Under the pieces are notes generated by a model that was not told the DNA's origin, did not search any database, and saw nothing but the letters and a program-made list of their open reading frames with translations. The translations under genes were made by a program, and so were the position numbers. A DNA stretch of 64,000 bases from Agrobacterium cavarae (lineage in GTDB: Bacteria > Pseudomonadota > Alphaproteobacteria > Rhizobiales > Rhizobiaceae). Location: assembly GCF_004310285.1 (NCBI RefSeq), contig NZ_SISF01000029.1, forward strand, positions 101,412 through 165,411, read 5' to 3'. Positions 14,841-30,144 of this stretch are shown here, in pieces (the first letter of the stretch is position 1; each line of letters starts with the position of its first letter).

Positions 14841-16832
14841 TCAGATATCCCGAAGCCCAGCGAAGAGTTCAGTGTTCTTCGAGGCTGTGCGATAGAATAC
14901 CGGCGGTTTCCCGATTGGGGCTGCGACCGTGACTTCCTGACCGCCATCATGCGTCGAGCCGGTCCACACATGCACCCACTCAGCGTCTCGCGGCAGGTAG
15001 ACGGTGCGCTCGCTTTGCCCCGCCTGCCAGACCGGCGCGATCAGAAGGTCTTCTCCGTAAAGATAGGCGTCCTGAATGTCATATGTTCTGCGGTCGTCCT
15101 CGTGATGCAGGAAAAGCGGGCGTTGCACGGGCAGGCCGGTTTCGGCCGCTTGTCTGGAGAGAGACTTCAGGTAGGGGGCCAGGTGAACATAGACCGCTGT
15201 CATGCGGGCAAAGTGCGCGAGCACAGTTTCGTCCTGGTCGATCTGTAGATTGTCCCGCGGGCGATTGCCCTCGTGGGTGCGCATGACGGGGGTGAAGGCG
15301 GCCATTTCGGCCCAGCGCATCAGGAGTTCTGCTGTGCGAACATTACCGAAGAGGCTGGTATAGCCGCCGATATCGGAGTGGTGGTAGGCGTTGCCCAGCA
15401 GGCCTGAGGACAGCGCGCCGGAGATGACTGTGACAAGGCCGTCATGCCTTGTGAAATCCACCGACTGGTCTCCGCCCCACAGCAACGGGCAATGCGCCTG
15501 GACCCCGGTGAACCCTGCGCGCATGAAAAATAGTGCCTCGCCGGTCTTGCCCCGGCTTGCGACTGCCTTCGCGTTTACCTCTGCCCAGATCGTCGGCCAC
15601 GCATTGTGCATCAGCTTGGCATCCACGCCGTTGGAGAGATGGATGTCGATAGGGAGATATTCGCCGAAATCCGCCATCCAACCGGAGAGGCCATAATCGA
15701 GCATGTTCTGGCCAATGATCGTTTCGGCAAACCAGTCCATCGCTTCCGGGTTGGTAAAATCCACCACGCCGCAATCGAACTCGCCAAAATCGACCAGCGC
15801 CGTTTCACCGTCGTCGTTCTTGGCAAAGTAACCCTTCGCTTCGGCCTCCGGGAAGAAGGAGCCATCGGCGCAAAGATAGGGGTTCACATAGCCGAGGAAA
15901 CGGATGTCGTTATCGGCAAGCTCGGCGATCTTCTGGCGGAGTGCTGGATAGCGTTCCTCGTTGGCCTTCCAGTCCCAAAAAAGCCGCGCGCCGAAAGAGG
16001 TGTGGCGCAGGCCAACCCAGTCTTCGCACCACAGCCCGGAGACTTTCACACCCGCCGCGCGGATTTTCTCAAGCCGCGCAAAAGACTGCTCGCCGTCCTT
16101 AAGACCGATGATCGCGCCGTTATAGACCCATTCCGGCAGTTCGGGCTGGCGGCCAAAACGTAGCGAAAGCTCTCCAACCAGTGCTTTGAAGCTGTCTGCT
16201 GCGAAAAACTCCAGGCGTTCCGGTACGGCCCAGGCCTCGATCTCGTGGAAGCCGTCACGGCGAAAGTCAAAGACGGAATAGGCGGTCGTTTCCACATGCA
16301 GCGCGTAGCGACGCGATGAGACGTAAGTCGGCTGCGGGTAGTTGGTGTGGTAGTAGTCTCCGCCCGCCTTGCTGGTGACGTCTGCCTTGAACGTCAGTTC
16401 TGTGCTCTTGTCGCGGCCGACGCCAGGTTCTGACGTCCAGAGTGGGAACTTTCGTCCACGCATATTGAAGTAGGACATCTGCTCGCCACCGCCCCAGACG
16501 CATTCGTCCTTTTCGGCGACGACTCGCAACCAGAAGCGGTTAATGGATGGATCGAGTGCTTCGATCTCGACGCTGTTGTCTACGACGCTTAAGCGAAGCC
16601 TCGGCGGCTGGCCTTTCGCAGTGGACAGCGTGATGCGGTCGCCTTCCAATTCTGCGTGAGTCAGTGCGACGCGCTCCACCACGTAATCTTCGATATCGAA
16701 ATTGCCGCGATACATATCCATACGCTCTTCGCCCTTGCCGACAAAGAAGCATGGAGCATCGGCCGAATGGTGCAGAACGGTGCTTCCGTTGATGGCCAGT
16801 TCGAAGCCATTGGCTGTTTTTTGGAAATGCAT
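14841..16832 (-). CDS. smoI: Sulfoquinovosidase (GH31)
   Basis: 663-residue retaining alpha-glycosidase that releases sulfoquinovose (SQ) from sulfoquinovosyl glycerol or sulfolipid derivatives. The GH31 nucleophile is Asp388 in WMADFGEYLP and the acid/base is Asp455 in GGDQSVDF. The sulfonate-recognising Arg283 and Trp286 sit in TSFGARLFW, and the GGYTSL loop (equivalent to Tyr508 of E. coli YihQ) is present. With the start at 16832 the numbers 283, 286 and 455 coincide with those I recall for the Agrobacterium SQase, which supports the start; an ATG 15 bases upstream is the alternative. Ordinary GH31 alpha-glucosidases lack this Arg/Trp pair. It follows the HutC-type regulator on the same strand. 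Confidence 0.95.
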   Translation of the reverse strand: MHFQKTANGFELAINGSTVLHHSADAPCFFVGKGEERMDMYRGNFDIEDYVVERVALTHAELEGDRITLSTAKGQPPRLRLSVVDNSVEIEALDPSINRFWLRVVAEKDECVWGGGEQMSYFNMRGRKFPLWTSEPGVGRDKSTELTFKADVTSKAGGDYYHTNYPQPTYVSSRRYALHVETTAYSVFDFRRDGFHEIEAWAVPERLEFFAADSFKALVGELSLRFGRQPELPEWVYNGAIIGLKDGEQSFARLEKIRAAGVKVSGLWCEDWVGLRHTSFGARLFWDWKANEERYPALRQKIAELADNDIRFLGYVNPYLCADGSFFPEAEAKGYFAKNDDGETALVDFGEFDCGVVDFTNPEAMDWFAETIIGQNMLDYGLSGWMADFGEYLPIDIHLSNGVDAKLMHNAWPTIWAEVNAKAVASRGKTGEALFFMRAGFTGVQAHCPLLWGGDQSVDFTRHDGLVTVISGALSSGLLGNAYHHSDIGGYTSLFGNVRTAELLMRWAEMAAFTPVMRTHEGNRPRDNLQIDQDETVLAHFARMTAVYVHLAPYLKSLSRQAAETGLPVQRPLFLHHEDDRRTYDIQDAYLYGEDLLIAPVWQAGQSERTVYLPRDAEWVHVWTGSTHDGGQEVTVAAPIGKPPVFYRTASKNTELFAGLRDI

Positions 16833-17012
16833 GGCAAACTTTCTCATTTGTGACGCGCCGATGTGCTTGACGACGCCCATCGCAGGTGGCGCCTTCTGGG
16901 GATGATCTGAATGGGTGACCAAGGCCCGGCGTTTGTTCAGAACCGCGGATGGCGCTTTGTGTCCGCCTGTGTCTGCGTGTGGGGATCGCCAAGCGCGCTG
17001 CATCTCTGCTCA

Positions 17013-17723
17013 CTATCGCAATCGGCTGACATATCGAGCAACGGTATGGTCATACCAGGTGTGCGATACCTCGGCCTTCTGTCCGTCATGGGAGTGACTG
17101 ATGCGCAGGATGTGGGGCAGGAGATCGCCGGTGGCGGGACCGAAGGCGGCGGGTTTCCAGTCCGGAACCCGGCCCAGATCGATGTAGTCCTCTGCCTTGG
17201 CGATCCAGAGATTCAGTTTTGTGCGGTAGTATAGGTAAAGCGACTCGGACAAATCCTCGGCCACGATCGAATCGACATAGGCGCCATCGAGCCAAATCTC
17301 CTCGATGGCAGCAACCTTGCCCCCGATCCGACGCAGTCGGCGAATGCGGTGACCCTCCAACGACGTGCCGAAGGAGGGAAGGGTCGGATCTTTCGTTTCG
17401 CGGCTGACACTCAGAATCTCCGCCGTCGGCAGGCCGCCACCTTCGATCAGCTCCAACCGGAACAGAGCGTAGACGCTCTGAGGATCGTTGATAGCCCGGA
17501 TGTAGTTTCCCGAGCCCTGAATGCGCTCCAGCAGCCCGCGGCTTTCCAGTTCGCCCAGCGTTTTGCGCAGCGTGCCGACAGCAATACCGAGATTTTTTGC
17601 CATGTCTCTCTCAGGAGGCAGTTTCTCGCCATCGATCAATCGGCCCGCCGCGACATCACGCACCAACGTCTCGGCGATCTGGAGATAAACGGGCAGACTT
17701 CCCTTGGCGCTCTTCATTTTCAA
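17013..17723 (-). CDS. GntR-family (HutC subfamily) regulator of the SMO genes
   Basis: 236-residue DNA-binding protein. The N-terminal winged HTH is clear (YLQIAETLVRDVAAGRLIDGEKLPPERDMAKNLGIAVGTLRKTLGELESRGLL). The C-terminal part (EGHRIRRLRRIGGKVAAIEEIWLDGAYV and SHTWYDHTVARYV) is a UTRA effector domain, so it belongs to the HutC rather than FadR branch. It lies between smoI (same strand) and smoCBA (divergent), so it is the likely local repressor. Its ligand may be SQ, sulfoquinovosyl glycerol or 6-oxo-glucose, which is inference. Confidence 0.9.
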   Translation of the reverse strand: MKMKSAKGSLPVYLQIAETLVRDVAAGRLIDGEKLPPERDMAKNLGIAVGTLRKTLGELESRGLLERIQGSGNYIRAINDPQSVYALFRLELIEGGGLPTAEILSVSRETKDPTLPSFGTSLEGHRIRRLRRIGGKVAAIEEIWLDGAYVDSIVAEDLSESLYLYYRTKLNLWIAKAEDYIDLGRVPDWKPAAFGPATGDLLPHILRISHSHDGQKAEVSHTWYDHTVARYVSRLR

Positions 17724-17749
17724 TGCCCTTCCTCCCGCGGCATAAAAAT

Positions 17750-17772
17750 TGATACATCATTGATTTACATCA
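17750..17772. promoter_or_regulatory. Tandem TGAT...ATCA palindromes in the smo divergent promoter
   Basis: TGATACATCA (17750-17759) and TGATTTACATCA (17761-17772) are consecutive inverted-repeat sites between the divergent GntR and smoC starts. The first differs from the CTGATAGATCAG sites near 21978 and 22780 only in the two central bases and the outermost pair. They are probable GntR operators. Confidence 0.55.
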
Positions 17773-17819
17773 TGGCGAATGATATTCAAATAGGAATTGG
17801 ACGTTTTGGGAGGATTTTT

Positions 17820-18977
17820 ATGACCGTTGTGCCCATAACCTCAGCTGACCTCGATGCTGCCGAGGTCTCCTGGTTTTCGGCGCTCTGCTCCGATGACTAT
17901 GAGTTTCTTGGCGTGCCAGATGGCCGCCTGCGCTCCAGCTGGGATCATTGCTCTTCCATCGTCAAAAAGGCCGAAGAGCTTGGCTTTCGCAACATTCTTT
18001 GCCCGTCTTCTTATCAGGTAGGCCAGGATACGCTGAGTTTCGTTGCCGGTTGTGCGCCGATCACTGAGGAGATCAACTTCCTCGCCGCAATCCGCTGTGG
18101 CGAGATGCAGCCCATCATGCTGGCGCGCACCGTCGCGACGCTTGATCACATGCTGAAAGGTCGCTTGACGCTGAACGTCATCAGTTCGGATTTTCCAGGC
18201 GAAGTCGCCGACAGTGCCTATCGCTACAAGCGCAGCCACGAGGTGGTCGAAATCCTGCGTCAGGCTTGGACGCGTGATGAAATCAATCACGATGGCGAAG
18301 TCTACCAGTTCAAGAATGTCACGACCGAGCCCGCGCGCCCTTATCAGCAGAATGGTGGACCGCTGCTCTATTTCGGGGGCTATTCGCCGGATGCACTGGA
18401 ACTCTGCGGTGCCCAATGCGACGTTTACCTGATGTGGCCTGAGGTGAAGGAACAACTGGCCGAGCGCATGCGCGCCGTGCATGCACGTGCCGAAGCCCAT
18501 GGCCGCACGCTGGATTACGGTCTGCGCGTTCATATGATCGTCCGCGACACGGAAGCCGAAGCACAGGAATACGCCGAACATCTCGTCTCGAAGCTCGATG
18601 ACGAATATGGACGTCAGATCCGTGCCCGCGCGCATGACAGCATCTCGCTCGGCGTTGCCCATCAGGCAAAGGCGCGCGAACAGGCTGACCAGTTCGGCTA
18701 CACCGAGCCCAATCTTTGGACCGGTGTCGGGCGCGCCCGTTCGGGATGTGGTGCGGCACTTGTCGGTTCCACCGATCAGGTCCTGACGAAGCTTGAGGAA
18801 TATCAGAAGATGGGCATTCGCGCCTTCATCTTCTCCGGTTATCCGCATCTTGACGAGGCCGAGCATTTTGGCCGTAAGGTTCTACCGCAAATGAAGACCT
18901 GCTCGTTGCCGCATGTACGTGGACGCGTTCCGGCACAAACCCCTGCAACACCTCTTGGCAATGGAGAGCGCCACTAA
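17820..18977 (+). CDS. smoC: Sulfoquinovose monooxygenase (FMNH2-dependent, luciferase-like)
   Basis: 385-residue flavin-dependent monooxygenase of the bacterial luciferase/SsuD family. In the sulfo-SMO pathway it cleaves the C-S bond of SQ with O2 and FMNH2, giving 6-oxo-glucose and sulfite. Family signs are FRNILCPSSYQVGQDTLSFVAG, HMLKGRLTLNVISSDFPGE and the SSYxxGQ-like substrate region of alkanesulfonate monooxygenases. The start at 17820 has GGGAGG six bases upstream; the open frame continues far upstream but only through the regulator's antisense. Its stop overlaps the next gene (TAATG), and the flavin reductase that would supply FMNH2 is two genes downstream. Confidence 0.92.
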   Translation: MTVVPITSADLDAAEVSWFSALCSDDYEFLGVPDGRLRSSWDHCSSIVKKAEELGFRNILCPSSYQVGQDTLSFVAGCAPITEEINFLAAIRCGEMQPIMLARTVATLDHMLKGRLTLNVISSDFPGEVADSAYRYKRSHEVVEILRQAWTRDEINHDGEVYQFKNVTTEPARPYQQNGGPLLYFGGYSPDALELCGAQCDVYLMWPEVKEQLAERMRAVHARAEAHGRTLDYGLRVHMIVRDTEAEAQEYAEHLVSKLDDEYGRQIRARAHDSISLGVAHQAKAREQADQFGYTEPNLWTGVGRARSGCGAALVGSTDQVLTKLEEYQKMGIRAFIFSGYPHLDEAEHFGRKVLPQMKTCSLPHVRGRVPAQTPATPLGNGERH

Positions 18978-19867
18978 TGCAACGCATCGATATCACATCC
19001 GGGCTTTCCTTCAGCCGCATCGTTTACGGCATGTGGCGGATCGGCGATGATGCCGACACCTCGCCGCGCCACGTGCAGGCGAAGATCGAGGCCTGCCTGG
19101 AACAGGGCATCACCACCATGGATCAGGCCGATATTTATGGCGGCTATACAGCGGAAGCCATTCTGGGCAATGGGCTTAGAGAGGCGCCATCGCTGCGCGA
19201 CAAAATCGAAATCGTGACGAAATGCGGCATCGTTGCTCCCGCCGGCCGCCATGCGGCTGCCCGCGTCAAGCATTACGATACGGGTGCGAAGCACATCAAT
19301 GCGTCCGTCGAAGCCTCGCTGCGCGACATGAATACAGATCGTATCGATCTGCTCCTGATCCACCGTCCGGATCCGATGATGGATCCGGAAGAGACTGGTG
19401 AGACGCTGGATTCGCTGGTGGCCTCCGGCAAGGTCAGGAGTGTCGGCGTATCAAACTTCCGACCTTGGGATTTTTCGCTATTGCAATCCAACATGACGGA
19501 AGAGCTGGTCACCAACCAGATCGAGATCAGCCTTGCTGAAACCTCTGCCTTCATCAATGGCGATCTCGCCTATCTGCAGGAGCGCGCCCTTCCTGTCATG
19601 GCCTGGTCTCCTCTGGGCGGTGGGTCGCTGATGGGCAAGGATGGTCCATTGTCCGACGCGCTGGAGCGTATCGCCCAGGAGAATAATGTCGATGCGGCCG
19701 CCGTTGTCGTCGCCTGGCTTCTGGCCCATCCGGCGAAGATCCTGCCGGTGATGGGAACCAACAATCTGGCCCGTATCGCTTCCATTTCGGATGCCGAAAA
19801 GGTCGAAATGGACCGCCAGACATGGTTCGAACTCTATACGCTGGCAAACGGTCGTGAGGTGCCCTGA
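18977..19867 (+). CDS. smoB: 6-oxo-glucose reductase (aldo-keto reductase)
   Basis: 296-residue NADPH-dependent aldo-keto reductase that reduces the 6-oxo-glucose formed by SmoC to D-glucose. The AKR tetrad is visible: Asp and Tyr in [10 protein letters not shown], Lys in IVTKCGI and His in LLIHRPDP. The protein starts [21 protein letters not shown] as in YdhF-like AKRs. It is translationally coupled to smoC and smoA by overlapping stop/start codons (TAATG and TGATG), so the three enzymes are made together. The SMO role is assigned from family and context. Confidence 0.92.
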
Positions 19868-20397
19868 TGACATCGATGAGCAGTGTGAACACGCAGAACG
19901 AGCATCTCTTCGTTCCGGACGCGACGACCGCGCGAAGCTTTCGCAATGCGCTTGGAAACTTTCCAACGGGTGTGACGGTGGTGACGGCCGATACGGCCAA
20001 CGGGCCGCTTGGCATGACGGTCAACAGCTTCTCGTCCGTGTCACTGGACCCGCCACTGGTGCTCTGGTCTCCAGCAAAGACCTCAACCCGCCACGACTTT
20101 TTCATCGGCGCGACAAACTTCGCCATCCATGTTTTGGACGCCGAACAGGACGCTCTTTGCTCGCGCTTTACCCGCGGCGGCCGTGGCTTTGAGGAACTGG
20201 ACTGGGAGCGAAATTCAGAAGGCGTGCCGATCATTCCGGGGACATTGAGCCGCTTCGAATGTGCCCAGGCGTCAGTTCACGATGCGGGCGACCACTCCAT
20301 CATCATCGGTCGCGTCCTTCGTGCCGCCCACCGTGAAGGCGACCCCTTGTGCTTCGCACGCGGCGCCTTCGGACGTTTCACCGTCAACGCACAATAA
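19867..20397 (+). CDS. smoA: Flavin reductase partner of the monooxygenase
   Basis: 176-residue NAD(P)H:FMN reductase of the short HpaC/SnaC/ActVB family, which supplies FMNH2 to SmoC by diffusion. Typical motifs are [36 protein letters not shown] and a late [10 protein letters not shown]. The start codon overlaps the smoB stop. It is the last gene of smoCBA; the next plus-strand gene is 1.6 kb away, with two minus-strand genes between. Confidence 0.92.
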
Positions 20398-20406
20398 CTT
20401 ACGCGC

Positions 20407-20601
20407 TCAGCCCTGAAACAGCGCCAAAACCGCCGAGATCACCGTCGCGCCGCCAATCGGCGCGACGAGCGCCAACACGGCGTTGAAGGCCAATACCCAA
20501 ATCAGAACTTTCTGCTCGCGCTCGGAAAGCTGCCGATACTCCGGTTTCCGCGGAGGCGGTTCGGGTTGCTGTCGATAGTAGCCTTCCACATCACGATACA
20601 T
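20407..20601 (-). CDS. Small single-pass membrane protein, unknown function
   Basis: 64 residues. A charged, proline-rich N-terminus (YRQQPEPPPRKPEYRQLSEREQKV) is followed by one long hydrophobic stretch LIWVLAFNAVLALVAPIGGATVISAVLALF that could be one or two tight membrane passes. The start at 20601 has GAGGG 6 bases upstream, and codon use looks normal. I do not recognise the family. It lies convergent to smoA with 9 bp between. Confidence 0.6.
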   Translation of the reverse strand: MYRDVEGYYRQQPEPPPRKPEYRQLSEREQKVLIWVLAFNAVLALVAPIGGATVISAVLALFQG

Positions 20602-20794
20602 GCCGTTTCCCTCGCATCGTATTCATATCTATACTACCAAAGGCTCGGTCTGGATCACAAGATGGACCGACAAATCGAAGATCTCTGAGGCGCGCCCCTC
20701 TTTGTTGTCGATGCACAAACTGGTGCATGAAAACCATACGCTTGTCGGATGGTAAGCGGCGCTTGCGGCGCCACTCACCTTGCCTATTCGTGGC

Positions 20795-21946
20795 CTAGAA
20801 CAGGTCTTGAGGAATGGGAAGACGGTCGTTTTTCGGCGCAGGTCCGAGCTTTGACGTTGGTAGGCGCACGGGCCTTGCCCATTCCCGCCGCGCGTCTTCC
20901 GAGAGAACGAGGCCGTGGCCGGGGCGATTGGGCGCGTAAGCATAGCCATCGCGAATTTCGATCGGCGTTTCCACCAGATGGTCGTAGTTCTGGAAGGAGT
21001 ATTCCAGCCATTCCACTTCAGGCAGAGCTGCCGCCATATGAATGCCGACTTCCAGGAACGTGTTGCCAAGGCTGACGGGTATGCCCATTTCGGCGGCGAG
21101 CCAGCCGATACGCATGACATCCGTGACCTGGCCATGAACATTCAGAAGGTCGGTACCGTGGTTCTCCAGAAGGATGCGCTTTCCCGGCATGTCGAGATAC
21201 TCGCCGCTGTTGATTTGAGTCCAGTTGACGGCGTGGCGTAACGTCCGCAGCCCCTCAAAGTCATGACGCAAAATCGGGTCTTCGACCCAAAGAAGATCGT
21301 GGCCCGCATCTCGAATGGCTGTCAATTTGACCAGCGCCTCTTTTGAATTCCAGGCTTCGTTGGGATCGATCATGACCAGCGACCCGGCCGGCACCGATTC
21401 CCGCAAAAGCTCCAGTCGTCTCAAGTCCCGCTGAAAGTCCGGGTGGCCGACCTTGATCTTGAAGGCTGTGTATCCAATGCTGGCCGCATAGGAGAATAGA
21501 GCGCGGAAGGCTTCGTCGCTGAGGTGAAAATCAAGTCCGCTTGCATAGGCGCGAACGCGGTCTCGTCTGCTTCCAAGAAGCTGGTGAAGCGGTAGGCCCG
21601 CTTCTTTTGCTGCAAGGTCCCAAAGAGCAACCTGCAACGCCTCGTGGAATGGTAAGGAAAAGGCGCGCTGATTTCCGCCACGAGGTCTATTGACGCGATG
21701 CACGAGACCTATGGCCTTTTGCCCCTTAATCATCGGCCAAACTTCGGTTTCGAAAACCGTCTCAATCTCTGCCTGATCGGGCAGGGGATAAAACAACGAC
21801 TGAATGAACCCCAGTCCGACCTCACCGCTTTCGGAGACCAGTTCCAGAGCGGCGACATTGGTATCGTCGATGCGAACCTGACTATCGCCAATTACTCTGT
21901 CGCGGGCAAACTGAAATCGCGTTATACGGAATTGAGAAATAGACAT
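20795..21946 (-). CDS. Enolase-superfamily enzyme (mandelate racemase/muconate lactonizing type), substrate unknown
   Basis: 383-residue TIM-barrel enzyme with an N-terminal capping domain. Visible active-site elements are the strand-2 KxK (FKIKVG), the metal ligands Asp (MIDPNEAW), Glu (LWVEDP) and Glu (NSGEY), and the barrel end SLGNTFLEVGIHMAAALPE. The last barrel position carries Leu-Gly where mandelate racemase has its His, and NVHGQVTD stands at strand 6, so the proton-relay set differs from the best-known subgroups. It diverges from the FCD regulator gene at 22009, with a CTGATCTATCAG palindrome between. Likely reactions are dehydration, epimerisation or racemisation of an acid sugar or related carboxylate. 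Confidence 0.88.
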   Translation of the reverse strand: MSISQFRITRFQFARDRVIGDSQVRIDDTNVAALELVSESGEVGLGFIQSLFYPLPDQAEIETVFETEVWPMIKGQKAIGLVHRVNRPRGGNQRAFSLPFHEALQVALWDLAAKEAGLPLHQLLGSRRDRVRAYASGLDFHLSDEAFRALFSYAASIGYTAFKIKVGHPDFQRDLRRLELLRESVPAGSLVMIDPNEAWNSKEALVKLTAIRDAGHDLLWVEDPILRHDFEGLRTLRHAVNWTQINSGEYLDMPGKRILLENHGTDLLNVHGQVTDVMRIGWLAAEMGIPVSLGNTFLEVGIHMAAALPEVEWLEYSFQNYDHLVETPIEIRDGYAYAPNRPGHGLVLSEDARREWARPVRLPTSKLGPAPKNDRLPIPQDLF

Positions 21947-21977
21947 GATGCGCTCTTTGATCGTTTAATGACATACA

Positions 21978-21989
21978 CTGATCTATCAG
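21978..21989. promoter_or_regulatory. Operator-like palindrome CTGATCTATCAG
   Basis: Inverted repeat between the divergent enolase-family and GntR genes. Its exact reverse complement occurs before the sugar ABC operon (22780-22791). The shared 12-mer at both promoters strongly suggests the binding site of the 22009-22707 regulator. Confidence 0.65.
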
Positions 21990-22008
21990 AAGGAAAACTT
22001 TTGTCATC

Positions 22009-22707
22009 ATGAAAAACATGCCGGAGCGAAGAAGTGCGAGTTTGAACGTAGCGGCGTCGGGTGCTCCGCGCCTGAGCGATGTCGCTTATGAGCGTATCCT
22101 CGAAAGCCTGTTCGAACGAAGGGTGCCGGTAGGGGCGTTCATTTCGCAAAATGAACTATGTGCGATCGTTGATGTGCCGGTCGCCCCGCTGCGTGACGCG
22201 CTGCGGGTGCTGGAGACGGAAGGCATTCTGACAATCCATCCCCGGTCTGGCATCCAGTTCATCCGGCCTGGACTTGAATTGACACGCTCCACCTATCAAT
22301 TCCGATCAATCGTAGAGCGCGCCGCCGTACGGGTCTTTGCCGAGGAGGGGGATGAAAATGTCACAAACGCCCTGGAAGTCCGGCATTCCAGGCTTTTGCG
22401 CCGTGTCGAACGCGACGGAATAGGGCCGGAGCAGATTCAGGAGATGGATGCGCTGGAAATGGAATTGCATGGCCAAATCATCCAGGCGTTGCGCAATCCG
22501 TTGATCGAGAGCGCGTATCGACGCATGCACAATTATCTCAGATTGCTGCGTCTGGAGCGAAAGGTCACGCCACCCATCATGACCCGAACGCTCAAGGAGC
22601 ATCTCGATATTCTCGAGGCTTGCGGCACGAGAAATCCCGACGCTGCGGAGAAGGCTCTTTATGCCCATTTCCAGGCAGCCATGCAGCGTAACCTCGGCTT
22701 GGTCTGA
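22009..22707 (+). CDS. GntR-family (FadR/FCD subfamily) regulator
   Basis: 232-residue regulator. The N-terminal winged HTH runs through ISQNELCAIVDVPVAPLRDALRVLETEGILTIHPRSG. The helical C-terminal FCD domain carries the metal-binding His set (in EMELHGQII, LKEHLDIL and LYAHFQAAM). FCD regulators usually sense carboxylates or sugar acids. It sits between the enolase-family gene (divergent) and the sugar ABC operon (same strand, 114 bp downstream), and both promoters hold the same palindrome. It probably controls both; control may extend to smoCBA. Confidence 0.9.
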   Translation: MKNMPERRSASLNVAASGAPRLSDVAYERILESLFERRVPVGAFISQNELCAIVDVPVAPLRDALRVLETEGILTIHPRSGIQFIRPGLELTRSTYQFRSIVERAAVRVFAEEGDENVTNALEVRHSRLLRRVERDGIGPEQIQEMDALEMELHGQIIQALRNPLIESAYRRMHNYLRLLRLERKVTPPIMTRTLKEHLDILEACGTRNPDAAEKALYAHFQAAMQRNLGLV

Positions 22708-22779
22708 TTTGCCATCGCGAAATAAGGGCGGTGGGAACTGTCCCGTGTTGCTTACCTCAAAGAAGGGTGCTAGGTTCGA

Positions 22780-22791
22780 CTGATAGATCAG
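22780..22791. promoter_or_regulatory. Operator-like palindrome CTGATAGATCAG before the sugar ABC operon
   Basis: Exact reverse complement of the site at 21978-21989. A further half-like CTGATC lies 9 bases downstream (22801), and the gene's Shine-Dalgarno GGGAGG follows. This fits repressor binding close to the transcription start. Confidence 0.6.
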
Positions 22792-22821
22792 AAAGGGAGT
22801 CTGATCTTTTGGGAGGTTTTC

Positions 22822-24060
22822 ATGCAACTTAGCAAACGCGAATTCTTGGCCGCGAGCGCGGCGCTGGCTCTGGCCGCAGGCCTGCGTAACGCCAACGCCG
22901 CCACGTCCATCAGCTACTGGCATCATTTCGCCAGTCAGTCGGAGATGGCAGGGCTGGCCAAAATCATTCAACTCTTTGCATCAGCACATCCGGATGTGTC
23001 GGTCACGCAGGAGAACATCCCCAATTCCGAATACATGGCGAAAGTGTCTTCGGCGGTTGTTGCCGGCGGCCGACCGGACACCGGCATGGTGATCGCCGAA
23101 CGTATTGCCGATTTGACGGCGATGGACGCCCTCGTCGATATTTCCGAGCGCGTCAATACGTGGGATGGTAAAGCCAATCTCCCAGACAACCGCTGGGCGG
23201 GCATGTCGCATGATGGCGCAATTTACGCGGTTCCGGCCTATGCATTTGTTGACTGGATGTATTACCGCAAGGACTATTTTGAGGAGGCGGGCATTGCCGG
23301 TCCTCCGAAGACCTTCGAGGAATTTCTGACGGTTAGCCGCAAGCTGACGGACCCTTCCAAGAACCGCTATGCATTCGGTATGCGCGGTGGTGCGGGTGCC
23401 TTCAAATACGTCATCGACGTGATGGAGGCCTTCGGCTCGCCTATCGTCAAGAACGGTCAGGCGGCCATTGACAAGCCGGCGGCCGTGGAGGCAATCACCT
23501 TCTATGCCGATCTGTTCCGTAAGGAAAAAGTCGCGCCGCCAAGTGCGCCGAACGATAGCTACCGCCAGATCATGGAAGGTTTTAGAACCGGTCAGACGGC
23601 GATGATCTGGCATCATACGGGCTCGCTGATCGAGATTTCGACCGCTCTTAAGCCCGGCGTTCAGTTCAGCACGGCGCCCATGCCATCGGGGCCGAAGGCG
23701 CACATAGCGCGCGTAGCCTATGCGGGCAACGGCATCTTCAAGGAAGACAATATCGAGGCCGCGTGGAAGTGGATCAGTTTCTGGGGTCAGACCGACGCGG
23801 CAATCGCCCTTCTTGAAGCCACCGGCTATTTTCCCGCATCCACAGCAGCGCTGAAGGATGAGCGAATAACAGGCAATCCGATCTATGGCGCAGCAACACA
23901 GACGCTTGATTTCGGCCGCCTGCCGAACGGTTTCGTGGGTGCTGCGGGATGGTCTGAGAACGTCGTCAATCCCACCTTCCAGGCGGTTCTGACGGGGCAA
24001 CTGGAGCCAGGTGAGGCTGTCGATCGCATGATAGAAGGGCTTGAAGCCGCCCTTCGCTAA
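22822..24060 (+). CDS. Sugar ABC transporter substrate-binding protein (family 1)
   Basis: 412-residue periplasmic receptor. The leader MQLSKREFLAASAALALAAGL resembles a Tat-type signal (S-K-R-x-F-L). The mature sequence begins TSISYWHHFASQSEMAG and has the family-1 features of UgpB/MalE-like proteins that bind sugars or glycerol-phosphate-like glycosides. It is first of a four-gene importer operon. Because SMO clusters of Agrobacterium include a family-1 importer (SmoEFGH) for sulfoquinovosyl glycerol, and because of the shared operator, this could be the SQ-glyceride receptor. An acid-sugar ligand fits the enolase neighbour equally well. Confidence 0.9.
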   Translation: MQLSKREFLAASAALALAAGLRNANAATSISYWHHFASQSEMAGLAKIIQLFASAHPDVSVTQENIPNSEYMAKVSSAVVAGGRPDTGMVIAERIADLTAMDALVDISERVNTWDGKANLPDNRWAGMSHDGAIYAVPAYAFVDWMYYRKDYFEEAGIAGPPKTFEEFLTVSRKLTDPSKNRYAFGMRGGAGAFKYVIDVMEAFGSPIVKNGQAAIDKPAAVEAITFYADLFRKEKVAPPSAPNDSYRQIMEGFRTGQTAMIWHHTGSLIEISTALKPGVQFSTAPMPSGPKAHIARVAYAGNGIFKEDNIEAAWKWISFWGQTDAAIALLEATGYFPASTAALKDERITGNPIYGAATQTLDFGRLPNGFVGAAGWSENVVNPTFQAVLTGQLEPGEAVDRMIEGLEAALR

Positions 24061-24123
24061 TCGCCTTCAGGCGCGGGACGTCCAAGCGTACCGCGCGCCA
24101 AGCAGGGACGGCGTCCAAGCCGC

Positions 24124-25047
24124 ATGTTCATGACCCCACAATCCAAACGCCCGTTTCTCAGCGGCCTCGGAGAAATCTCGGAGACGCGATACTGGGTGTA
24201 TCTTCTTTTGCTCCCGAGCCTTCTGTTACTCTTTCTCGTCGTCGCCTATCCGACGATTTATGGCTTCTTCATCAGTGTGCGCGAGATGCGTCTGACACGA
24301 CCAGGCCTTAACGGCTGGGTGGGGATGAAGCACTATGTTGCGATGATGTCGGACCGCGTTTTCTGGATTTCGCTGAAGAATACGGCGATCTGGGTGGTCG
24401 CAGCGGTGACAATCGAAATGGCTCTGGGCTTCGTTGCAGCCCTCGCGTTGAACCGCAACCTGCCGGGAACGAAGATTTTCGGCATCCTCATTCTTCTCCC
24501 CTATTTTCTTCCCAATGTTGTTGCCGGACATATGTGGGCGCTGCTTCTCGACCCGCGTCTTGGTGTCATCAACGATATTCTGGTCCGGCTCGGTATTTTG
24601 AGCACCTATAAGGCGTGGTTTGCAGATCCAAATACCGCATTGGCCGCAACGATCCTCGTCGAGGCCTGGCACGGTTTCCCGTTCTTCGCGCTTCTCTTTC
24701 TCGCCGGCCTCAAAGGTATTCCGGAAGACTTGTACAAGGCGGCCGCCGTGGACGGCGCAGGCGCTTTTACCAAGTTCAGATTGATCACAGTGCCGATGTT
24801 GAAGACGGTCATCACAGCTGCCGTGATCCTGCGTGTTATCAGCCTCGTGAACTCGCCTGATCTTCTGCTGGTTCTGACCGGAGGAGGTCCTGGCAACTCC
24901 ACGCAAGTCCTTTCGCTCTACGCTTTCCAGACAGCGTATCGCGACTTCAATTTTGGCTATGCGGGTGCTCTGTCCGTGGTGATGTTCTTCATCCTCATGG
25001 TCTTCGCAATGATTTACATCCGCCTGGCGCGCATTACGAAGGAATGA
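24124..25047 (+). CDS. Sugar ABC transporter permease (UgpA/MalF type)
   Basis: 307-residue inner-membrane permease with six predicted hydrophobic segments. The first is YLLLLPSLLLLFLVVAYPTIYGFFIS. The conserved EAA motif (KAAAVDGAGAFTKFRLITVPMLKTV) docks on the ATPase. The start could also be the ATG six bases later. It forms a heterodimer with the product of 25051-25896. Confidence 0.93.
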   Translation: MFMTPQSKRPFLSGLGEISETRYWVYLLLLPSLLLLFLVVAYPTIYGFFISVREMRLTRPGLNGWVGMKHYVAMMSDRVFWISLKNTAIWVVAAVTIEMALGFVAALALNRNLPGTKIFGILILLPYFLPNVVAGHMWALLLDPRLGVINDILVRLGILSTYKAWFADPNTALAATILVEAWHGFPFFALLFLAGLKGIPEDLYKAAAVDGAGAFTKFRLITVPMLKTVITAAVILRVISLVNSPDLLLVLTGGGPGNSTQVLSLYAFQTAYRDFNFGYAGALSVVMFFILMVFAMIYIRLARITKE

Positions 25048-25050
25048 GCG

Positions 25051-25896
25051 ATGTTTAAAAGCAAACGCCAACGGCGCGTGGCGGGCGACATTCTGACCTA
25101 TGTCGTTTTGTTTACCCTGGCAGGGTTTTGCCTTGGGCCGATGGTCTGGATGTTCCTGACGTCTTTGAAGCCGGAGGCCGATATCGTTACCTCTGAGATG
25201 CAGTATATTCCTCGGCACGTCACATTCGAAAACTACGTGGCGATCTGGACCCAGTCGAATTTTCCAGTGCTGATTACCAACAGCTTGATCGTCACCACCA
25301 TTACGGTCGCGATCTGTGTCGTGGCGGGAACGCTCGCGGCCTATGCCTTCGCGCGCCTCACCTTCCGCGGGCGCAACAACATCATGCTGGGATATCTGCT
25401 GGTCCGCATGTTTCCCGCAGTCATGATGATTATTCCGCTTTACGTCATGATGAGGACGGTGGGGTTGGTCGATAGCAGGTTTGGCCTGGCGCTGGCCTAT
25501 ACGAGCTTCCTGCTGCCGCTGTTTGTCTGGATGCTGAAAGGCTTCTTCGATGCCGCGCCCAAGGAGCTTGAAAGCGCAGCACGTATCGATGGTTCGACCC
25601 GTCTTGGCGCCATGGTCCGCATCGTTCTGCCGCTGGCGCGAAACGGCCTTGTCGCAAGTTCGGTCTTCATCGCCATCGCCGCGTGGAATGAATTCATCTT
25701 CGCGTTGATGCTGACCACGGGCCAGGGGTCTCGAACCTGGCCTGTCGGCCTTCAATTGATGGTTGGGGAATTCCAATTGCCCTGGGGCGTTCTGGCCGCG
25801 GGCGGCATTCTCAGCATTCTTCCCGTCATGCTCCTCTTTGCAATCGTTCAGCGCGCAATGGTTCAAGGCCTGACGGCCGGGGCCATCAAGGGCTAA
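25051..25896 (+). CDS. Sugar ABC transporter permease (UgpE/MalG type)
   Basis: 281-residue partner permease. It shows six hydrophobic segments and the EAA loop (ELESAARIDGSTRLGAMVRIVLPLARNG). The start lies 3 bases after the preceding stop, so the two are translationally linked. The motif AWNEFIFALMLT before the last helix is typical of MalG-like permeases. Confidence 0.93.
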   Translation: MFKSKRQRRVAGDILTYVVLFTLAGFCLGPMVWMFLTSLKPEADIVTSEMQYIPRHVTFENYVAIWTQSNFPVLITNSLIVTTITVAICVVAGTLAAYAFARLTFRGRNNIMLGYLLVRMFPAVMMIIPLYVMMRTVGLVDSRFGLALAYTSFLLPLFVWMLKGFFDAAPKELESAARIDGSTRLGAMVRIVLPLARNGLVASSVFIAIAAWNEFIFALMLTTGQGSRTWPVGLQLMVGEFQLPWGVLAAGGILSILPVMLLFAIVQRAMVQGLTAGAIKG

Positions 25897-25908
25897 AGGA
25901 ACAGTTTC

Positions 25909-26991
25909 ATGGCAACACTTTCCCTCAACAACGTCCGCAAATCCTACGGTGCACTCGAAGTTCTGCATGGCATAGATATCGAGCTGGAGGATGGTGGATT
26001 TCTGGTGCTTCTTGGCCCGTCCGGCTGCGGCAAATCCACCTTGCTCAACATCATTGCCGGACTTGACGAAACCTCCAGCGGTGACATCGCCATAGGCGGG
26101 CAATCGGTCTCCGACCTGCCGCCCAAGGACCGTAACATCGCTATGGTCTTTCAGTCCTATGCGCTCTATCCCACCATGTCGGTGGAGCGGAATATCGGCT
26201 TTGGTCTGGAGATGCGCGGAACACCGGCAGATCAGCGACGTGAAGCGGTGACACGTGCGGCAGAGATGCTGCAGGTCAGCCACCTCCTAGACCGCAAGCC
26301 CGCCAATCTCTCAGGCGGCCAGCGCCAACGTGTAGCAATGGGCCGCGCCATCGTCCGCGATCCGGATTTGTTCCTGTTCGACGAGCCGCTCTCCAACCTC
26401 GACGCGAAGCTTAGGGTCGAGATGAGAACCGAAATCAAACGGCTCCATGAGCGATTGGGAACGAGCATCGTCTACGTGACCCACGACCAGATCGAAGCCA
26501 TGACGCTCGCGACAAAAGTGGCGGTCATGAAAGGTGGACATATCCAGCAACTGGCAGATCCGCGGGCGATCTATGAGCGGCCTGCCAATATGTTCGTTGC
26601 TGGGTTCATTGGCTCGCCAGCCATGAACTTCATCAATGGTCGCCTGGTAAAGCATGGCTCAGGCTGGCGGTTCGAGGCGCAAGGCGTTGCGCTTGATTTG
26701 GGTCCCACCGATAGCCATTGGTCTGAGAAAGACGTCATTCTCGGTGTGCGACCCGAAGAGTTCAAGATTGCGCGCGGCGATGAGACGGCACCATTTTCCG
26801 GCAGGATCGATGTGGTGGAACCGACTGGACCGGATACGATGCTGACCGCCCTGATTGGTGATCAGACGGTTGTTGCGCGTGTAGAGCCCCGCTTTTCAGG
26901 GAAGCGAGGAGACGGCATTCGCTTTGCCGTTGACGTTGCAAGTGTCAATCTTTTCGATCCGCAGACACAGCTGAGACTGGATTGGCGATGA
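25909..26991 (+). CDS. Sugar ABC transporter ATPase (UgpC/MsmX type)
   Basis: 360-residue ATPase with Walker A GPSGCGKST, signature LSGGQRQR, Walker B LFLFDEPLSNLD and switch His in YVTHDQ. A C-terminal TOBE/MalK-like regulatory domain (about 240-360, with GVRPEEFKIARG) follows. It energises the importer encoded by the three genes upstream. It is the last gene of the operon. Confidence 0.94.
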   Translation: MATLSLNNVRKSYGALEVLHGIDIELEDGGFLVLLGPSGCGKSTLLNIIAGLDETSSGDIAIGGQSVSDLPPKDRNIAMVFQSYALYPTMSVERNIGFGLEMRGTPADQRREAVTRAAEMLQVSHLLDRKPANLSGGQRQRVAMGRAIVRDPDLFLFDEPLSNLDAKLRVEMRTEIKRLHERLGTSIVYVTHDQIEAMTLATKVAVMKGGHIQQLADPRAIYERPANMFVAGFIGSPAMNFINGRLVKHGSGWRFEAQGVALDLGPTDSHWSEKDVILGVRPEEFKIARGDETAPFSGRIDVVEPTGPDTMLTALIGDQTVVARVEPRFSGKRGDGIRFAVDVASVNLFDPQTQLRLDWR

Positions 26992-27245
26992 TGGCACTGT
27001 CACAACGGTTTACAGCTATTCGGTAGCTGGCCGAACCGCTTGTTGGAGGAGTTGAAAAAACTGCTCGGAATTGAAGCAGCAACTCAATGAAACGTGGGTC
27101 ACGCTGTTTGTGTCGGGGCTCTGATAGTATGCCATCATTGCACTACAGCGTTCCGACAGCCAGGATTTGCCACGCTATTGCGAGCGCTGGGGCGGCAAGA
27201 ATAATAGTCGTTTGAGAGAATGGGGCGCCTCTCTGCACTATTATT

Positions 27246-27998
27246 TCACCTAAATATCGGTTCGATGCTGCAATCCAGAAGCCGCGGGTCGATGCCGGTC
27301 TCCATCTCGGCGAACATGGAATCGACGAAACCGATCAGCGTGTCGGTGGCAGAAAGAGCCGCCTCAAGATGTCGATTGGCGACTGCATTCAGTACCGATA
27401 GATGACAGTCGATGGTGGTTGAAAGATCGGCCCTTCCGCCCGTGACGGTGTGATGAATAAAACCGATGCGGCGATAGAGCGTGTGAAGCGGTCGCAGCGT
27501 GTGCTCAAGAAACGGTTCATTGGCGGCAGCGAGTAATAGCTGATCGATCCGGCGGTCCAGCATGTTGAAATCGGTAAGCGTGATCTTATCGCGGCGTTCG
27601 CGCAAAGCATGTTCGATATGGAGCATCTGGTTACGGTGGGAGAGACTGGCACGGTCGATAGCCAGCGTTACAACGAAGCGTTCCATGTCGCGACGCAGCT
27701 TTAGAAGCAGGCGTTCCCGCGCAAGATCGATGGGTGTTACCCTGAGACCGTGACGGGGCAGGACCGTCAGAAGCGTATCGGTTGCCAATCGACTGACAGC
27801 GTTGTGAACGGGCGTTCGTCCCAAACCGGTCGAAATCTGCAATTCCTGCAATGTGAGTTGCTGGCCTGGCCTCAATTCGCAATTGATCAGCAGCGCCTCG
27901 ATTCTCTCATAGGCCAGTTCGAAGAAATTAATCCGGTTGGCCCGCTTCGGCTTCGTGTCTTCCGTGACGAGAGAGGGCTTTGTTTTCTTCTGTGCCAT
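27246..27998 (-). CDS. GntR-family (FadR/FCD-like) regulator
   Basis: 250-residue regulator. A charged N-terminal tail (QKKTKPSLVTEDTKPKRANR) precedes the winged HTH (LTLQELQISTGLGRTPVHNAVSRLATDTLLTVLPRHGL). A helical ligand domain follows (ERFVVTLAIDRASLSHRNQ, TIDCHLSVLNAVANRHLEAA), with fewer obvious metal-binding His than standard FCD proteins. It diverges from the acid-sugar dehydratase and SDR genes at 28161 and is their likely regulator. Confidence 0.87.
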   Translation of the reverse strand: MAQKKTKPSLVTEDTKPKRANRINFFELAYERIEALLINCELRPGQQLTLQELQISTGLGRTPVHNAVSRLATDTLLTVLPRHGLRVTPIDLARERLLLKLRRDMERFVVTLAIDRASLSHRNQMLHIEHALRERRDKITLTDFNMLDRRIDQLLLAAANEPFLEHTLRPLHTLYRRIGFIHHTVTGGRADLSTTIDCHLSVLNAVANRHLEAALSATDTLIGFVDSMFAEMETGIDPRLLDCSIEPIFR

Positions 27999-28160
27999 TT
28001 TCGTTTCCTCCAGCCGAGGCGATGAATATCTTATACTCTTTGGCTTTAAACATGTTGTGATATTTTACCAGTGGCATTGCAAATGTTGGCGAGAGGCGGC
28101 TTGGAGGTTCGCCACGGCATCCTGCTGATGATCGTGGAACGATGTCGTCGGGAGGAATGC

Positions 28161-29363
28161 ATGAAGATTACGTCTATCGAGACACTACGAACGGAAGAGT
28201 TTGCCAATGTTCTTTGGGTCCGCGTCCATACCGATGCCGGACTGATCGGTCTCGGCGAAACCTTTTACGGCGCGGGCTCGGTCGAGGCGCATATTCACGA
28301 CGTGCTTGCAGGCCGGCTGTTGGGGCGTGACCCACTGCGGATCGAGGCCCACGCGCGCGAGCTCGTGAATCTGCCGATGGCGCAGGCGTCAACCGGTGCG
28401 GAGTATCGTGCTGCCTCGGCGATCGACCTTGCGCTTTGGGATATCTTCGGGAAGCTCTGCGACCAGCCGGTCCACCAGATGTTGGGTGGCCTCTGCCATG
28501 ATCGCGTCCCTGTCTACAATACCTGCGCGGGTTACGGCTATGTTCGTTCCAACAAGATCAAGCCGGTCGATACCTGGAATTTCCGCGACAATTCAGAGGG
28601 TCCGTATGAAGACCTCAAGGGCTTCATGACGAATGCGGGGGCGCTCGCAGAAAATCTGCTGGAGCAGGGTATTTCGGCGATGAAGATCTGGCCTTTCGAT
28701 CCAGCCGCGATCGAGAATGACGGACGCTATATTACGGCCGAGCAGTTACGCGCCGCCATCAAGCCATTCGAGCAGATCCGCAAGCAGGTCGGCGACCGGA
28801 TGCAGATCATGGTGGAGTTTCATAGTCTGTGGAACCTGCCGACCATCAAGAAGATCGCCCGTGAACTGGAAGCCTTCGACCCGACGTGGTACGAAGATCC
28901 GATCCGGATGAATTCGGTCTCGGCACTCTCGGAGCTTGCGGCGTCGACGAGCGTTCCGATCTGCGCTTCCGAAACACTCGGTTCGCGCTTTCCGTACAAG
29001 GATATGCTGGAGTCAGGCGCCATCGGCATTGTCATGACCGATCTGGTCTGGACCGGCGGTCTGACCGAAGGCCGCAAGATAGCCTCACTCGCGGATACCT
29101 ACCACCGCCCTTACGCTCCGCATGACTGCACGGGGCCAGTGGCCTATGCGGCCGCCGTTCACTCGTCCTTCTCGCAGACAAACACGATGATCCAGGAATC
29201 GGTCCGCGCATTTTATACTGGTTGGTATAAAGAGCTTGTCACCCACGTCCCTGTGATCGAAAACGGCTTTGTACTGCCCATGGAGGGGCCGGGCCTCGGC
29301 ACAGACCTGCTGCCGCAGGTTTACGAACGCTCGGACCTTACGGTTCGCCGAAGCACGCTTTGA
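28161..29363 (+). CDS. Enolase-superfamily acid-sugar dehydratase
   Basis: 400-residue barrel enzyme (MKITSIETLRTEEFANVLWVRV) of the mandelate racemase/galactonate-mannonate dehydratase type. Candidate catalytic parts are Lys in AMKIWPFD, metal ligands in MVEFHSLWN, WYEDP and CASETLGS, and the general-base His in YAPHDCTGP. It would dehydrate an aldonate or uronate to a 2-keto-3-deoxy acid. I chose the ATG at 28161 because GGAGG lies 5 bases before it; an upstream in-frame start adds a stretch unlike the family. It is followed after 10 bp by an SDR gene. Confidence 0.9.
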   Translation: MKITSIETLRTEEFANVLWVRVHTDAGLIGLGETFYGAGSVEAHIHDVLAGRLLGRDPLRIEAHARELVNLPMAQASTGAEYRAASAIDLALWDIFGKLCDQPVHQMLGGLCHDRVPVYNTCAGYGYVRSNKIKPVDTWNFRDNSEGPYEDLKGFMTNAGALAENLLEQGISAMKIWPFDPAAIENDGRYITAEQLRAAIKPFEQIRKQVGDRMQIMVEFHSLWNLPTIKKIARELEAFDPTWYEDPIRMNSVSALSELAASTSVPICASETLGSRFPYKDMLESGAIGIVMTDLVWTGGLTEGRKIASLADTYHRPYAPHDCTGPVAYAAAVHSSFSQTNTMIQESVRAFYTGWYKELVTHVPVIENGFVLPMEGPGLGTDLLPQVYERSDLTVRRSTL

Positions 29364-29373
29364 GGAGGAAACG

Positions 29374-30144
29374 ATGAGCAACCATTCCATGTTCGATCTG
29401 ACCGGTCGCACCGCTCTCGTGACCGGCTCGTCGCGGGGCCTTGGTCGCGCCATGGCGGAGGGTCTGGCCGTTGCCGGCGCCCGCATCCTCATCAACGGAA
29501 CGAACCCGTCTCGCGTGGCAGAGACTGTCGCGGAGTTGCGGAGCGCAGGCCATGAAGCAGAGGCTGTGTCCTTCAACGTGACGTCTGAAGAAGAGGTGAA
29601 AGCGGCCTTCGAAAATCTGGACGCGGCGGGGACAGCCGTCGATATTCTCATCAACAATGCCGGCATCCAATATCGCAAGCCAATGGTTGAGCTGGACACC
29701 GCCGATTGGCAGCGGGTGATCGACACCAACCTCACAAGCGCCTTCGTCATCGGTCGCGAAGCAGCAAAGCGTATGATCGGGCGCGGATATGGCAAGATTG
29801 TCAATATCGGCTCGCTGACCAGCGAACTCGCCCGTGCGACTGTTGCGCCCTACACAGTGGCCAAGGGTGGCATCAAGATGCTGACGCGGGCCATGGCAGC
29901 GGAGTGGGCGCAGCATGGCATTCAGGCCAATGCCATCGGTCCCGGCTACATGCTGACCGACATGAATCAGGCGCTGATCGATAATCCCGAATTCGACGCC
30001 TGGGTGAAGGGTCGCACGCCATCGAAGCGCTGGGGCAAGCCGGAGGAACTGATCGGCACGGCAGTCTTCCTGTCCTCCGCAGCCTCGGACTACGTCAACG
30101 GTCAGATCATCTATGTCGATGGCGGCATGCTGGCTGTGCTGTAG
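29374..30144 (+). CDS. Short-chain dehydrogenase, gluconate 5-dehydrogenase-like
   Basis: 256-residue SDR. It has the cofactor motif TGSSRGLG, NNAG, the catalytic Ser (IVNIGSLTS), Tyr/Lys (YTVAKGG), and the closing DYVNGQIIYVDGGM. The closest style is IdnO/gluconate 5-dehydrogenase and related keto-acid-sugar reductases. AGGAGG lies just before the ATG. Coupled with the dehydratase, it probably interconverts keto- and hydroxy-sugar acids. Confidence 0.9.
   Translation: MSNHSMFDLTGRTALVTGSSRGLGRAMAEGLAVAGARILINGTNPSRVAETVAELRSAGHEAEAVSFNVTSEEEVKAAFENLDAAGTAVDILINNAGIQYRKPMVELDTADWQRVIDTNLTSAFVIGREAAKRMIGRGYGKIVNIGSLTSELARATVAPYTVAKGGIKMLTRAMAAEWAQHGIQANAIGPGYMLTDMNQALIDNPEFDAWVKGRTPSKRWGKPEELIGTAVFLSSAASDYVNGQIIYVDGGMLAVL

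What the first reader, a model, noticed from the sequence alone, without database searches (positions are those of the whole stretch)
17750..22791. A shared TGAT-N2-ATCA palindrome links the smo promoter, the enolase/GntR pair and the sugar importer
CTGATCTATCAG (21978) and its exact reverse complement CTGATAGATCAG (22780) flank the FCD-type GntR gene. TTGATACATCAT (17749-17760) in the smoC promoter has the same TGAT-N2-ATCA arms. Eight fixed bases would occur about once per 65 kb by chance, so three at three relevant promoters is notable. This suggests one regulon: SQ catabolism plus the adjacent importer and an uncharacterised enolase-superfamily enzyme.
Basis: partly seen in the sequence, partly recalled or inferred. 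Interest (0 to 1): 0.7.

Follow-up and report, generated by a model that had tools for sequence, protein, structure and literature searches.

The report
Local GntR operator pair, not sulfosugar regulon
Two of the three matching DNA palindromes look like a conserved on/off switch for a small transport-and-enzyme gene set and its own regulator, while the third belongs to a different switch in front of the sulfosugar genes, so the sequence gives little support for one shared regulon.

Summary
The three TGAT-N2-ATCA sites exist as stated. Two of them, CTGATCTATCAG (21978) and CTGATAGATCAG (22780), look like a genuine operator pair: in 18 orthologous loci of several Rhizobiales genera, site 1 is kept in 18 and site 2 in 17, the exception lacking the importer. 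They belong to a six-gene cassette of an enolase-superfamily gene, an FCD-GntR regulator and an ABC importer. The third site is part of another element, ATTGAT-N5-ATTGAT, present in 42 of 42 HutC/smoC promoters compared; exact TGAT-N2-ATCA appears in 22 loci but only 5 of 23 distinct sequences, when two variable columns read TC. Two of four genomes with both systems lack the palindrome at smo. No smo operon adjoins the cassette in the 18 loci, and the binding protein is only distantly related to SmoF. The single-regulon idea is not supported. New details: a conserved half-site exactly 21 bp from each palindrome, and Val in both regulators where canonical GntR proteins carry the G-reading Arg, which may explain the shared TGAT.

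The parts
21978..21989 (.). Operator 1, CTGATCTATCAG, between the divergent enolase-superfamily gene and the FCD-GntR gene
   Evidence: TGAT-N2-ATCA kept in 18 of 18 orthologous loci; arm positions 19 of 19 except the last G, 17 of 19, window included
22780..22791 (.). Operator 2, CTGATAGATCAG, between the FCD-GntR gene and the importer's binding-protein gene
   Evidence: kept in 17 of 18 orthologous loci, the exception having no importer there
21957..21961 (+). Possible extra half-site of operator 1 (TTGAT here, CTGAT in most relatives), 21 bp from the palindrome's left arm, on the enolase side
   Evidence: CTGAT at -21 in 16 of 19, TGAT in 18 of 19; no other offset outside the palindrome shared by 4 or more. 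It lies in a longer conserved block
22801..22805 (+). Possible extra half-site of operator 2 (CTGAT), 21 bp from the palindrome's left arm, just before the binding-protein gene's Shine-Dalgarno
   Evidence: CTGAT at +21 in 18 of 18; no other offset outside the palindrome shared by 4 or more
   Evidence: TTGAT-N6-TTGAT in 42 of 42 loci; one match in this genome at up to 3 mismatches, the reversed control pattern also giving one
20795..21946 (-). Enolase-superfamily (mandelate racemase/muconate lactonizing type) protein, 383 aa; nearest solved relative is 2OZ8, deposited as 'Mll7089 protein'
   Evidence: Pfam MR_MLE_C; 2oz8 E=2.2e-215
22009..22707 (+). FCD-GntR regulator, 232 aa; recognition helix PVAPLRDAL with invariant Val58
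   Evidence: Pfam GntR + FCD; Val58 invariant in 20 of 20 aligned
22822..24060 (+). ABC importer, solute-binding protein (not a SmoF ortholog)
   Evidence: SBP_bac_1; SmoF only E=6.2e-9, far down the list
24124..25047 (+). ABC importer permease 1
   Evidence: ORF; same place in 17 of 18 relatives
25051..25896 (+). ABC importer permease 2
   Evidence: ORF; same place in 17 of 18 relatives
25909..26991 (+). ABC importer ATPase, last gene of the cassette
   Evidence: ORF; same place in 17 of 18 relatives; DNA homology to four other cassettes ends at 26895-26969
17013..17717 (-). HutC/UTRA-type GntR regulator, the likely owner of the smo promoter element
   Evidence: Pfam GntR + UTRA; divergent from smoC in the 42 loci counted and paired with smoC in 7 of 7 distant ones
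17820..18977 (+). smoC, luciferase-like sulfoquinovose monooxygenase (first gene of smoCBA)
   Evidence: Bac_luciferase; start chosen after GGGAGG; the name rests on gene order and the recalled pathway

Best explanation
The two FCD-flanking palindromes are the operators of the local FCD-GntR protein (22009-22707), which controls itself, the divergent enolase-superfamily gene and the downstream ABC importer. Shown here: conservation across genera of both palindromes, of a CTGAT exactly 21 bp (two helical turns) from each, and of the six-gene layout. Inferred: a dimer binds each palindrome, perhaps with a second subunit pair using the half-site; this represses both transcription units and is relieved by a metabolite of the imported compound. 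The smo promoter site is a different operator, most likely of the HutC-type regulator next to smoC; its match to TGAT-N2-ATCA comes from two unconstrained bases.
For: Site 1 in 18 of 18 and site 2 in 17 of 18 orthologous loci, the bases next to the palindrome drifting apart from a conserved block on the structural-gene side. The site persists in a class-level relative whose FCD protein is 40% and enolase 61% identical and in another family (L021, FCD 66%). CTGAT lies at -21 (16 of 19) and +21 (18 of 18) and at no other offset shared by 4 or more. CTGATNNATCAG has 8 genome copies, six inside long ORFs. The smo element is ATTGAT-N5-ATTGAT in 42 of 42 loci, and CTGATNNATCAG is in 0 of 43 upstream rows. 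The cassette is apart from smo in 18 of 18 relatives. G010, the genome with the nearest HutC (92%), has the smo genes but nothing matching 20616-27252 at the aligned 16-kb locus, no FCD relative at E<=1e-30 and no relative of the binding protein at E<=1e-60.
Against: No binding or expression data. One 57%-identical FCD relative (L022) has no exact site, only CTGATAGGTCAG with one mismatch, and two 31-33% relatives (L023, L024) have none. The consensus scan found no sigma-70 promoter at either region, so the geometry of repression is not established. The half-sites lie in conserved blocks next to Shine-Dalgarno regions; at site 1 the neighbouring columns (-25 to -15) are nearly as conserved, so they may be kept for translation rather than binding. 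Weak FCD binding at the smo site in this genome is not excluded.
Confidence: 0.87

Rival explanations
1. One regulon: the FCD protein (or one shared factor) controls smo, the enolase gene and the importer together, so the importer serves sulfoquinovose catabolism.
For: Three of the genome's 42 sites lie within 5.04 kb (simulated P 0.029). The smo locus here lacks SmoF-type importer genes: the best SmoF match in the genome is 37% identical, versus 78-100% in G002, G007, G016 (source of the query) and G022. The cassette lies next to smoA.
Against: The exact palindrome at smo is in 5 of 23 distinct promoters and absent in two genomes that have the cassette. The smo site scores 6.6 bits against about 24. 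None of 18 cassettes elsewhere has a smo operon within the DNA held; one shows a partial 35%-identical smoB-like hit. G010 lacks both a close SmoF relative and the cassette's binding protein, so the cassette is not the general stand-in for the missing importer.
Confidence: 0.06
2. Partial cross-talk: because both regulators carry Val at the usual Arg position and use TGAT half-sites, the FCD protein binds the smo site weakly in genomes where the two columns read TC.
For: In 30 of the 33 GntR domains found in the genome, Val occurs in exactly 2, and only those 2 genes have a TGAT-N2-4-ATCA palindrome within 330 nt upstream of the HTH.
Against: The smo site lacks the outer C and G and the CK centre that are nearly invariant at FCD sites. 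The palindrome at smo does not follow the cassette: 2 of 4 genomes with both have it, as do 20 of the other 38 loci (not all of those 38 genomes were searched for the cassette).
Confidence: 0.07
3. The palindromes are chance or non-regulatory repeats.
For: 15 of 100 shuffles of the window give 3 or more sites.
Against: Conservation of both FCD-flanking sites across genera, down to a relative with a 40%-identical FCD protein.
Confidence: 0.02

Closest known systems
FadR/FCD-subfamily GntR repressors with local catabolic regulons, such as Atu1419 of Agrobacterium fabrum (PMC7797058, passages seen)
   Same: GntR wHTH plus FCD domain; short palindromes near its own and divergent genes; more than one operator, which the Atu1419 tetramer can loop
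   Different: Atu1419 operators are ATGTATACAT read through Arg45; here the operator is CTGAT-N2-ATCAG and the corresponding residue is Val; the operators are 802 bp apart and flank the regulator gene
BioR of alphaproteobacteria, operator TTATMKATAA (PMC4494728, section 10 read)
   Same: FadR-subfamily regulator with a non-TKGT/ACMA operator of the same TNAT-N2-ATNA layout
   Different: Biotin genes; TTAT arms rather than TGAT; its recognition helix was not compared here
HutC-subfamily regulators with direct-repeat operators, FarR and NagQ (PMC4494728, passage seen)
   Same: A HutC-type protein with a direct-repeat element, as at smo
   Different: Repeats there are TGTATTAWTT and TGGTATT; here ATTGAT with period 11; binding by the smo HutC protein is not tested
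Sulfo-ASMO (smo) operon of Agrobacterium tumefaciens (PMC9594981, passages seen; Sharma et al. 2022 recalled)
   Same: smoI, HutC regulator, smoC, smoB, smoA present here
   Different: SmoF-type binding protein and its importer missing from this locus, and no close relative of SmoF found in the genome

Membership tests
FadR/FCD subfamily of GntR regulators | N-terminal GntR wHTH and C-terminal FCD domain | tested here: met
   Pfam PF00392 E=3.3e-10 and PF07729 E=1.5e-17
FadR/FCD subfamily of GntR regulators | Operator with TKGT/ACMA boxes (common consensus in PMC4494728, not universal) | tested here: not met
   Conserved arms are CTGAT/ATCAG at both putative operators; known exceptions exist (BioR, NanR)
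FadR/FCD subfamily of GntR regulators | Arg at the recognition-helix position that reads G (most frequent, not universal) | tested here: not met
   Val58 invariant in 20 of 20; aligned to Arg of 7xp0
FadR/FCD subfamily of GntR regulators | FCD metal site, acidic residue plus three His (assignment recalled) | tested here: inconclusive
   H154, H198, H220 invariant, E150 nearly so; no metal data
Autoregulated divergent catabolic cassette | Operators at the regulator's own and the adjacent transport/enzyme promoters, conserved in orthologs | tested here: met
   18 of 18 and 17 of 18 loci
Autoregulated divergent catabolic cassette | Regulator binds the operators and responds to a cassette metabolite | not testable with these tools
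   No binding assay
   Present in 2 of 4 such genomes; absent at smo in G002 and G016, which have the cassette and both operators
SmoEFGH sulfoquinovosyl-glycerol importer | Binding protein orthologous to SmoF (7nbz) | tested here: not met
   Window protein vs SmoF E=6.2e-9; the binding protein of the G016 smo locus scores E=4e-210

The most novel reading that the evidence does not exclude
A change of the recognition-helix Arg to Val in two GntR subfamilies (FCD and HutC/UTRA) moved both from GT/AC operators to TGAT half-sites. In the FCD case the operator is composite: a palindrome plus a same-face half-site two helical turns away at each of two promoters that bracket the regulator's own gene, allowing a dimer-of-dimers to bind cooperatively or loop over the gene. 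Against generality: of 14 further Val-bearing proteins, which I read as MocR-type, only 1 has such a palindrome upstream.
Probability: 0.2. Interest if true: 0.5.

Novelty: new member of a known kind. Interest (0 to 1): 0.3.

Why it matters
It separates two regulators that a motif match alone would merge, and so removes a weak lead that the importer and enolase act in sulfosugar breakdown. It supplies a well-conserved, directly testable operator for a GntR protein with a non-canonical recognition helix, and it ties the enolase family of 2OZ8/Mll7089, for which I found no reported function, to a specific importer, which narrows the search for its substrate.

Tried and rejected
Promoter-versus-gene placement of all 42 TGATNNATCA sites: not done; only 15 came back as loci, and only the eight 12-mers were placed against ORFs.

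Val-to-TGAT as a general code: suggested by the genome's own paralogs, tested class-wide (55 of 58 loci could be scored) and not supported beyond the two orthologous groups: 5 of 8 Val proteins of those groups had the palindrome, against 1 of 14 other Val proteins, 1 of 17 Arg proteins and 0 of 11 Leu proteins.

Conserved neighbour genes that would name the pathway: no ORF family (150 aa or more, over 45% identity) outside the cassette was shared by 4 or more of 17 loci; L030, a short contig, was left out.

Sigma-70 promoters at the two regions: none found by consensus.

Literature: the operator strings, in five spellings, are in no paper of the held library. No paper about an operator of the smo regulator was recognised among the titles listed (20 of 38, 20 of 224 and 15 of 72 papers listed). 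In two reviews the word 'regulator' had no hit. '2OZ8' occurs in one method paper, 'Mll7089' in none (listing only).

Rows dropped: L043 (25% identical, partial, not an ortholog); L060 (same place as L044) and L053, L056, L059 (smoC without a HutC neighbour in the DNA held) from the smo counts. Only the best 30 of the HutC matches were returned as loci and compared.
Full report
OBSERVATION. The count is not remarkable by itself (15 of 100 shuffles give 3 or more). In the whole genome there are 42; three within 5,042 bp has a simulated probability of 0.029, and two of the eight CTGATNNATCAG copies within 802 bp has 0.008. Of those eight, six lie inside ORFs of 219-615 aa and only the FCD-flanking two lie between genes.

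THE TWO FCD SITES. A scan of genome contigs with the FCD protein gave 19 loci, of which 18 are orthologs (60-87% identity; the 19th is a 25% partial match and was dropped). In 18 of 18 the enolase gene diverges from the FCD gene with a TGAT-N2-ATCA site between them. In 17 of 18 a second site lies between the FCD gene and the importer; the exception, a Devosia bin, has no such importer there. With the window included, every base of CTGAT/ATCAG is invariant except the last G of site 1 (17 of 19). A relative in another family (L021, FCD 66%) keeps site 1, and one from the same class but another order, with FCD at 40% and enolase at 61%, has CTGATAGATCAG between the two genes. One 57% relative (L022) has only a one-mismatch version, and two relatives of 31-33% have none.

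A SECOND, SHARED FEATURE. Around each palindrome CTGAT recurs at one offset: -21 at site 1 (16 of 19; TGAT 18 of 19; the window itself has TTGAT) and +21 at site 2 (18 of 18); no other offset is shared by 4 or more. Twenty-one bp is two turns of DNA, so the half-site would face the same side. In both cases it lies on the side of the structural gene, near its Shine-Dalgarno, inside a conserved block; at site 1 the columns around it are nearly as conserved, so a role in binding is not proven. A published survey found weaker half-sites at 7-12 nt from the centre of many GntR sites (PMC4494728, section 17 read); the spacing here is longer.

THE smo SITE. I collected smoC and HutC relatives (for HutC only the best 30 places came as loci) and compared 42 HutC upstream regions. 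All 42 have TTGAT-N6-TTGAT, that is ATTGAT-N5-ATTGAT. The bases that complete ATCA in the window include columns 8 and 9 of that element, which vary freely (T11/C10/G2 and T13/C9/G1 among 23 distinct sequences). The exact palindrome is found in 22 of 42 loci but in 5 of 23 distinct sequences; 18 of the 22 share one identical 36-mer. Nine of 18 distinct 25-mers contain TGAT-N4-ATCA further along, three of them together with the N2 form. CTGATNNATCAG is in 0 of 43 upstream rows. Seven HutC relatives from other orders are next to smoC in 7 of 7, and 6 of 7 have the same repeat. The element has one match in this genome at up to three mismatches; its reversed control pattern also has one. It is most likely the operator of the HutC protein (inference).

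ARE THE TWO SYSTEMS LINKED? None of the 18 relatives has smo genes in the DNA around the cassette (up to 10 kb each side; one contig is only 8 kb); one locus shows a partial 35%-identical hit to smoB, an aldo-keto reductase. Among relatives, G033 has the cassette but no HutC match at E<=1e-30, and G002, G007, G016 and the window's genome have both. In G016 they are 177 kb apart on one contig. Of the four with both, the smo palindrome is present in two and absent in two. G010, which has the nearest HutC (92%), matches the window on both sides of 20616-27252 but has about 1.2 kb of other DNA there, so the cassette either arrived at this position or was lost in G010. Homology to four other cassettes spans at most 20801-26969, the six genes. 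The binding protein is far from SmoF (E=6.2e-9), while the protein at the smo locus of G016 is SmoF-like (E=4e-210). The FCD-site matrix gives the smo site 6.6 bits, against 24.2 and 24.0 for the two FCD sites, which were among its training sites. For the other side: the smo locus of this genome lacks its usual importer, so a link through the neighbouring importer cannot be fully excluded.

WHY THE HALF-SITES LOOK ALIKE. In canonical GntR proteins an Arg of the recognition helix reads the G of GT/AC boxes (PMC4494728, section 10 read; PMC7797058, passages). In the FCD protein this residue is Val58, invariant in 20 of 20. In the smo HutC proteins it is Val or Ile in 43 of 43 rows. Among 30 of the genome's 33 GntR domains, 23 have Arg and exactly two have Val, these two, and only these two genes have a TGAT-N2-4-ATCA palindrome upstream. 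The comparison was made after the fact. Class-wide, 14 other Val proteins, which I read as MocR-type, showed it in 1 of 14. So this is a lead, not a rule.

HOW IT LIKELY WORKS. Inferred: the FCD protein binds each palindrome as a dimer, perhaps with help from the half-site, and represses the enolase gene, itself and the importer until an imported compound or its product binds the FCD pocket. The pocket keeps three invariant His and a nearly invariant Glu expected for a metal site (assignment recalled). The enolase is closest to 2OZ8, deposited as Mll7089; the one paper found that names 2OZ8 was seen as a listing only. The substrate is unknown.

VERDICT. Observation confirmed, interpretation split: a conserved two-site local operator system, and a separate smo operator that matches it through two free bases. 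This is an ordinary kind of local GntR regulation with a non-canonical operator.

Noticed in passing
14841-20397: The smo locus has smoI, HutC, smoC, smoB and smoA but no SmoF-type importer; the best SmoF match in the genome is 37% identical, as it is in G010. How sulfoquinovose enters is open.
   Followed up: partly
20616-27252: A stretch of about 6.6 kb holding the cassette is replaced by about 1.2 kb of other DNA in the largely collinear relative G010.
   Followed up: partly
20795-21946: In the alignment to 2og9 and L-talarate/galactarate dehydratase, the enolase has Asn where these have the His of PH, and His where they have the Asp of PD, so the usual His-Asp catalytic pair of mandelate-racemase types (recalled) seems absent.
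   Followed up: no
27246-30144: A second FCD-GntR, a second enolase-superfamily gene and an SDR follow the cassette; DNA similar to 28176-30142 (73%) also lies in the 17-kb stretch around the cassette of G016 (L127), hinting at a functional link.
   Followed up: no
17013-17717 and 22009-22707: Both regulators carry Val at the recognition-helix position that is Arg in 23 of 30 GntR domains examined in this genome.
   Followed up: partly
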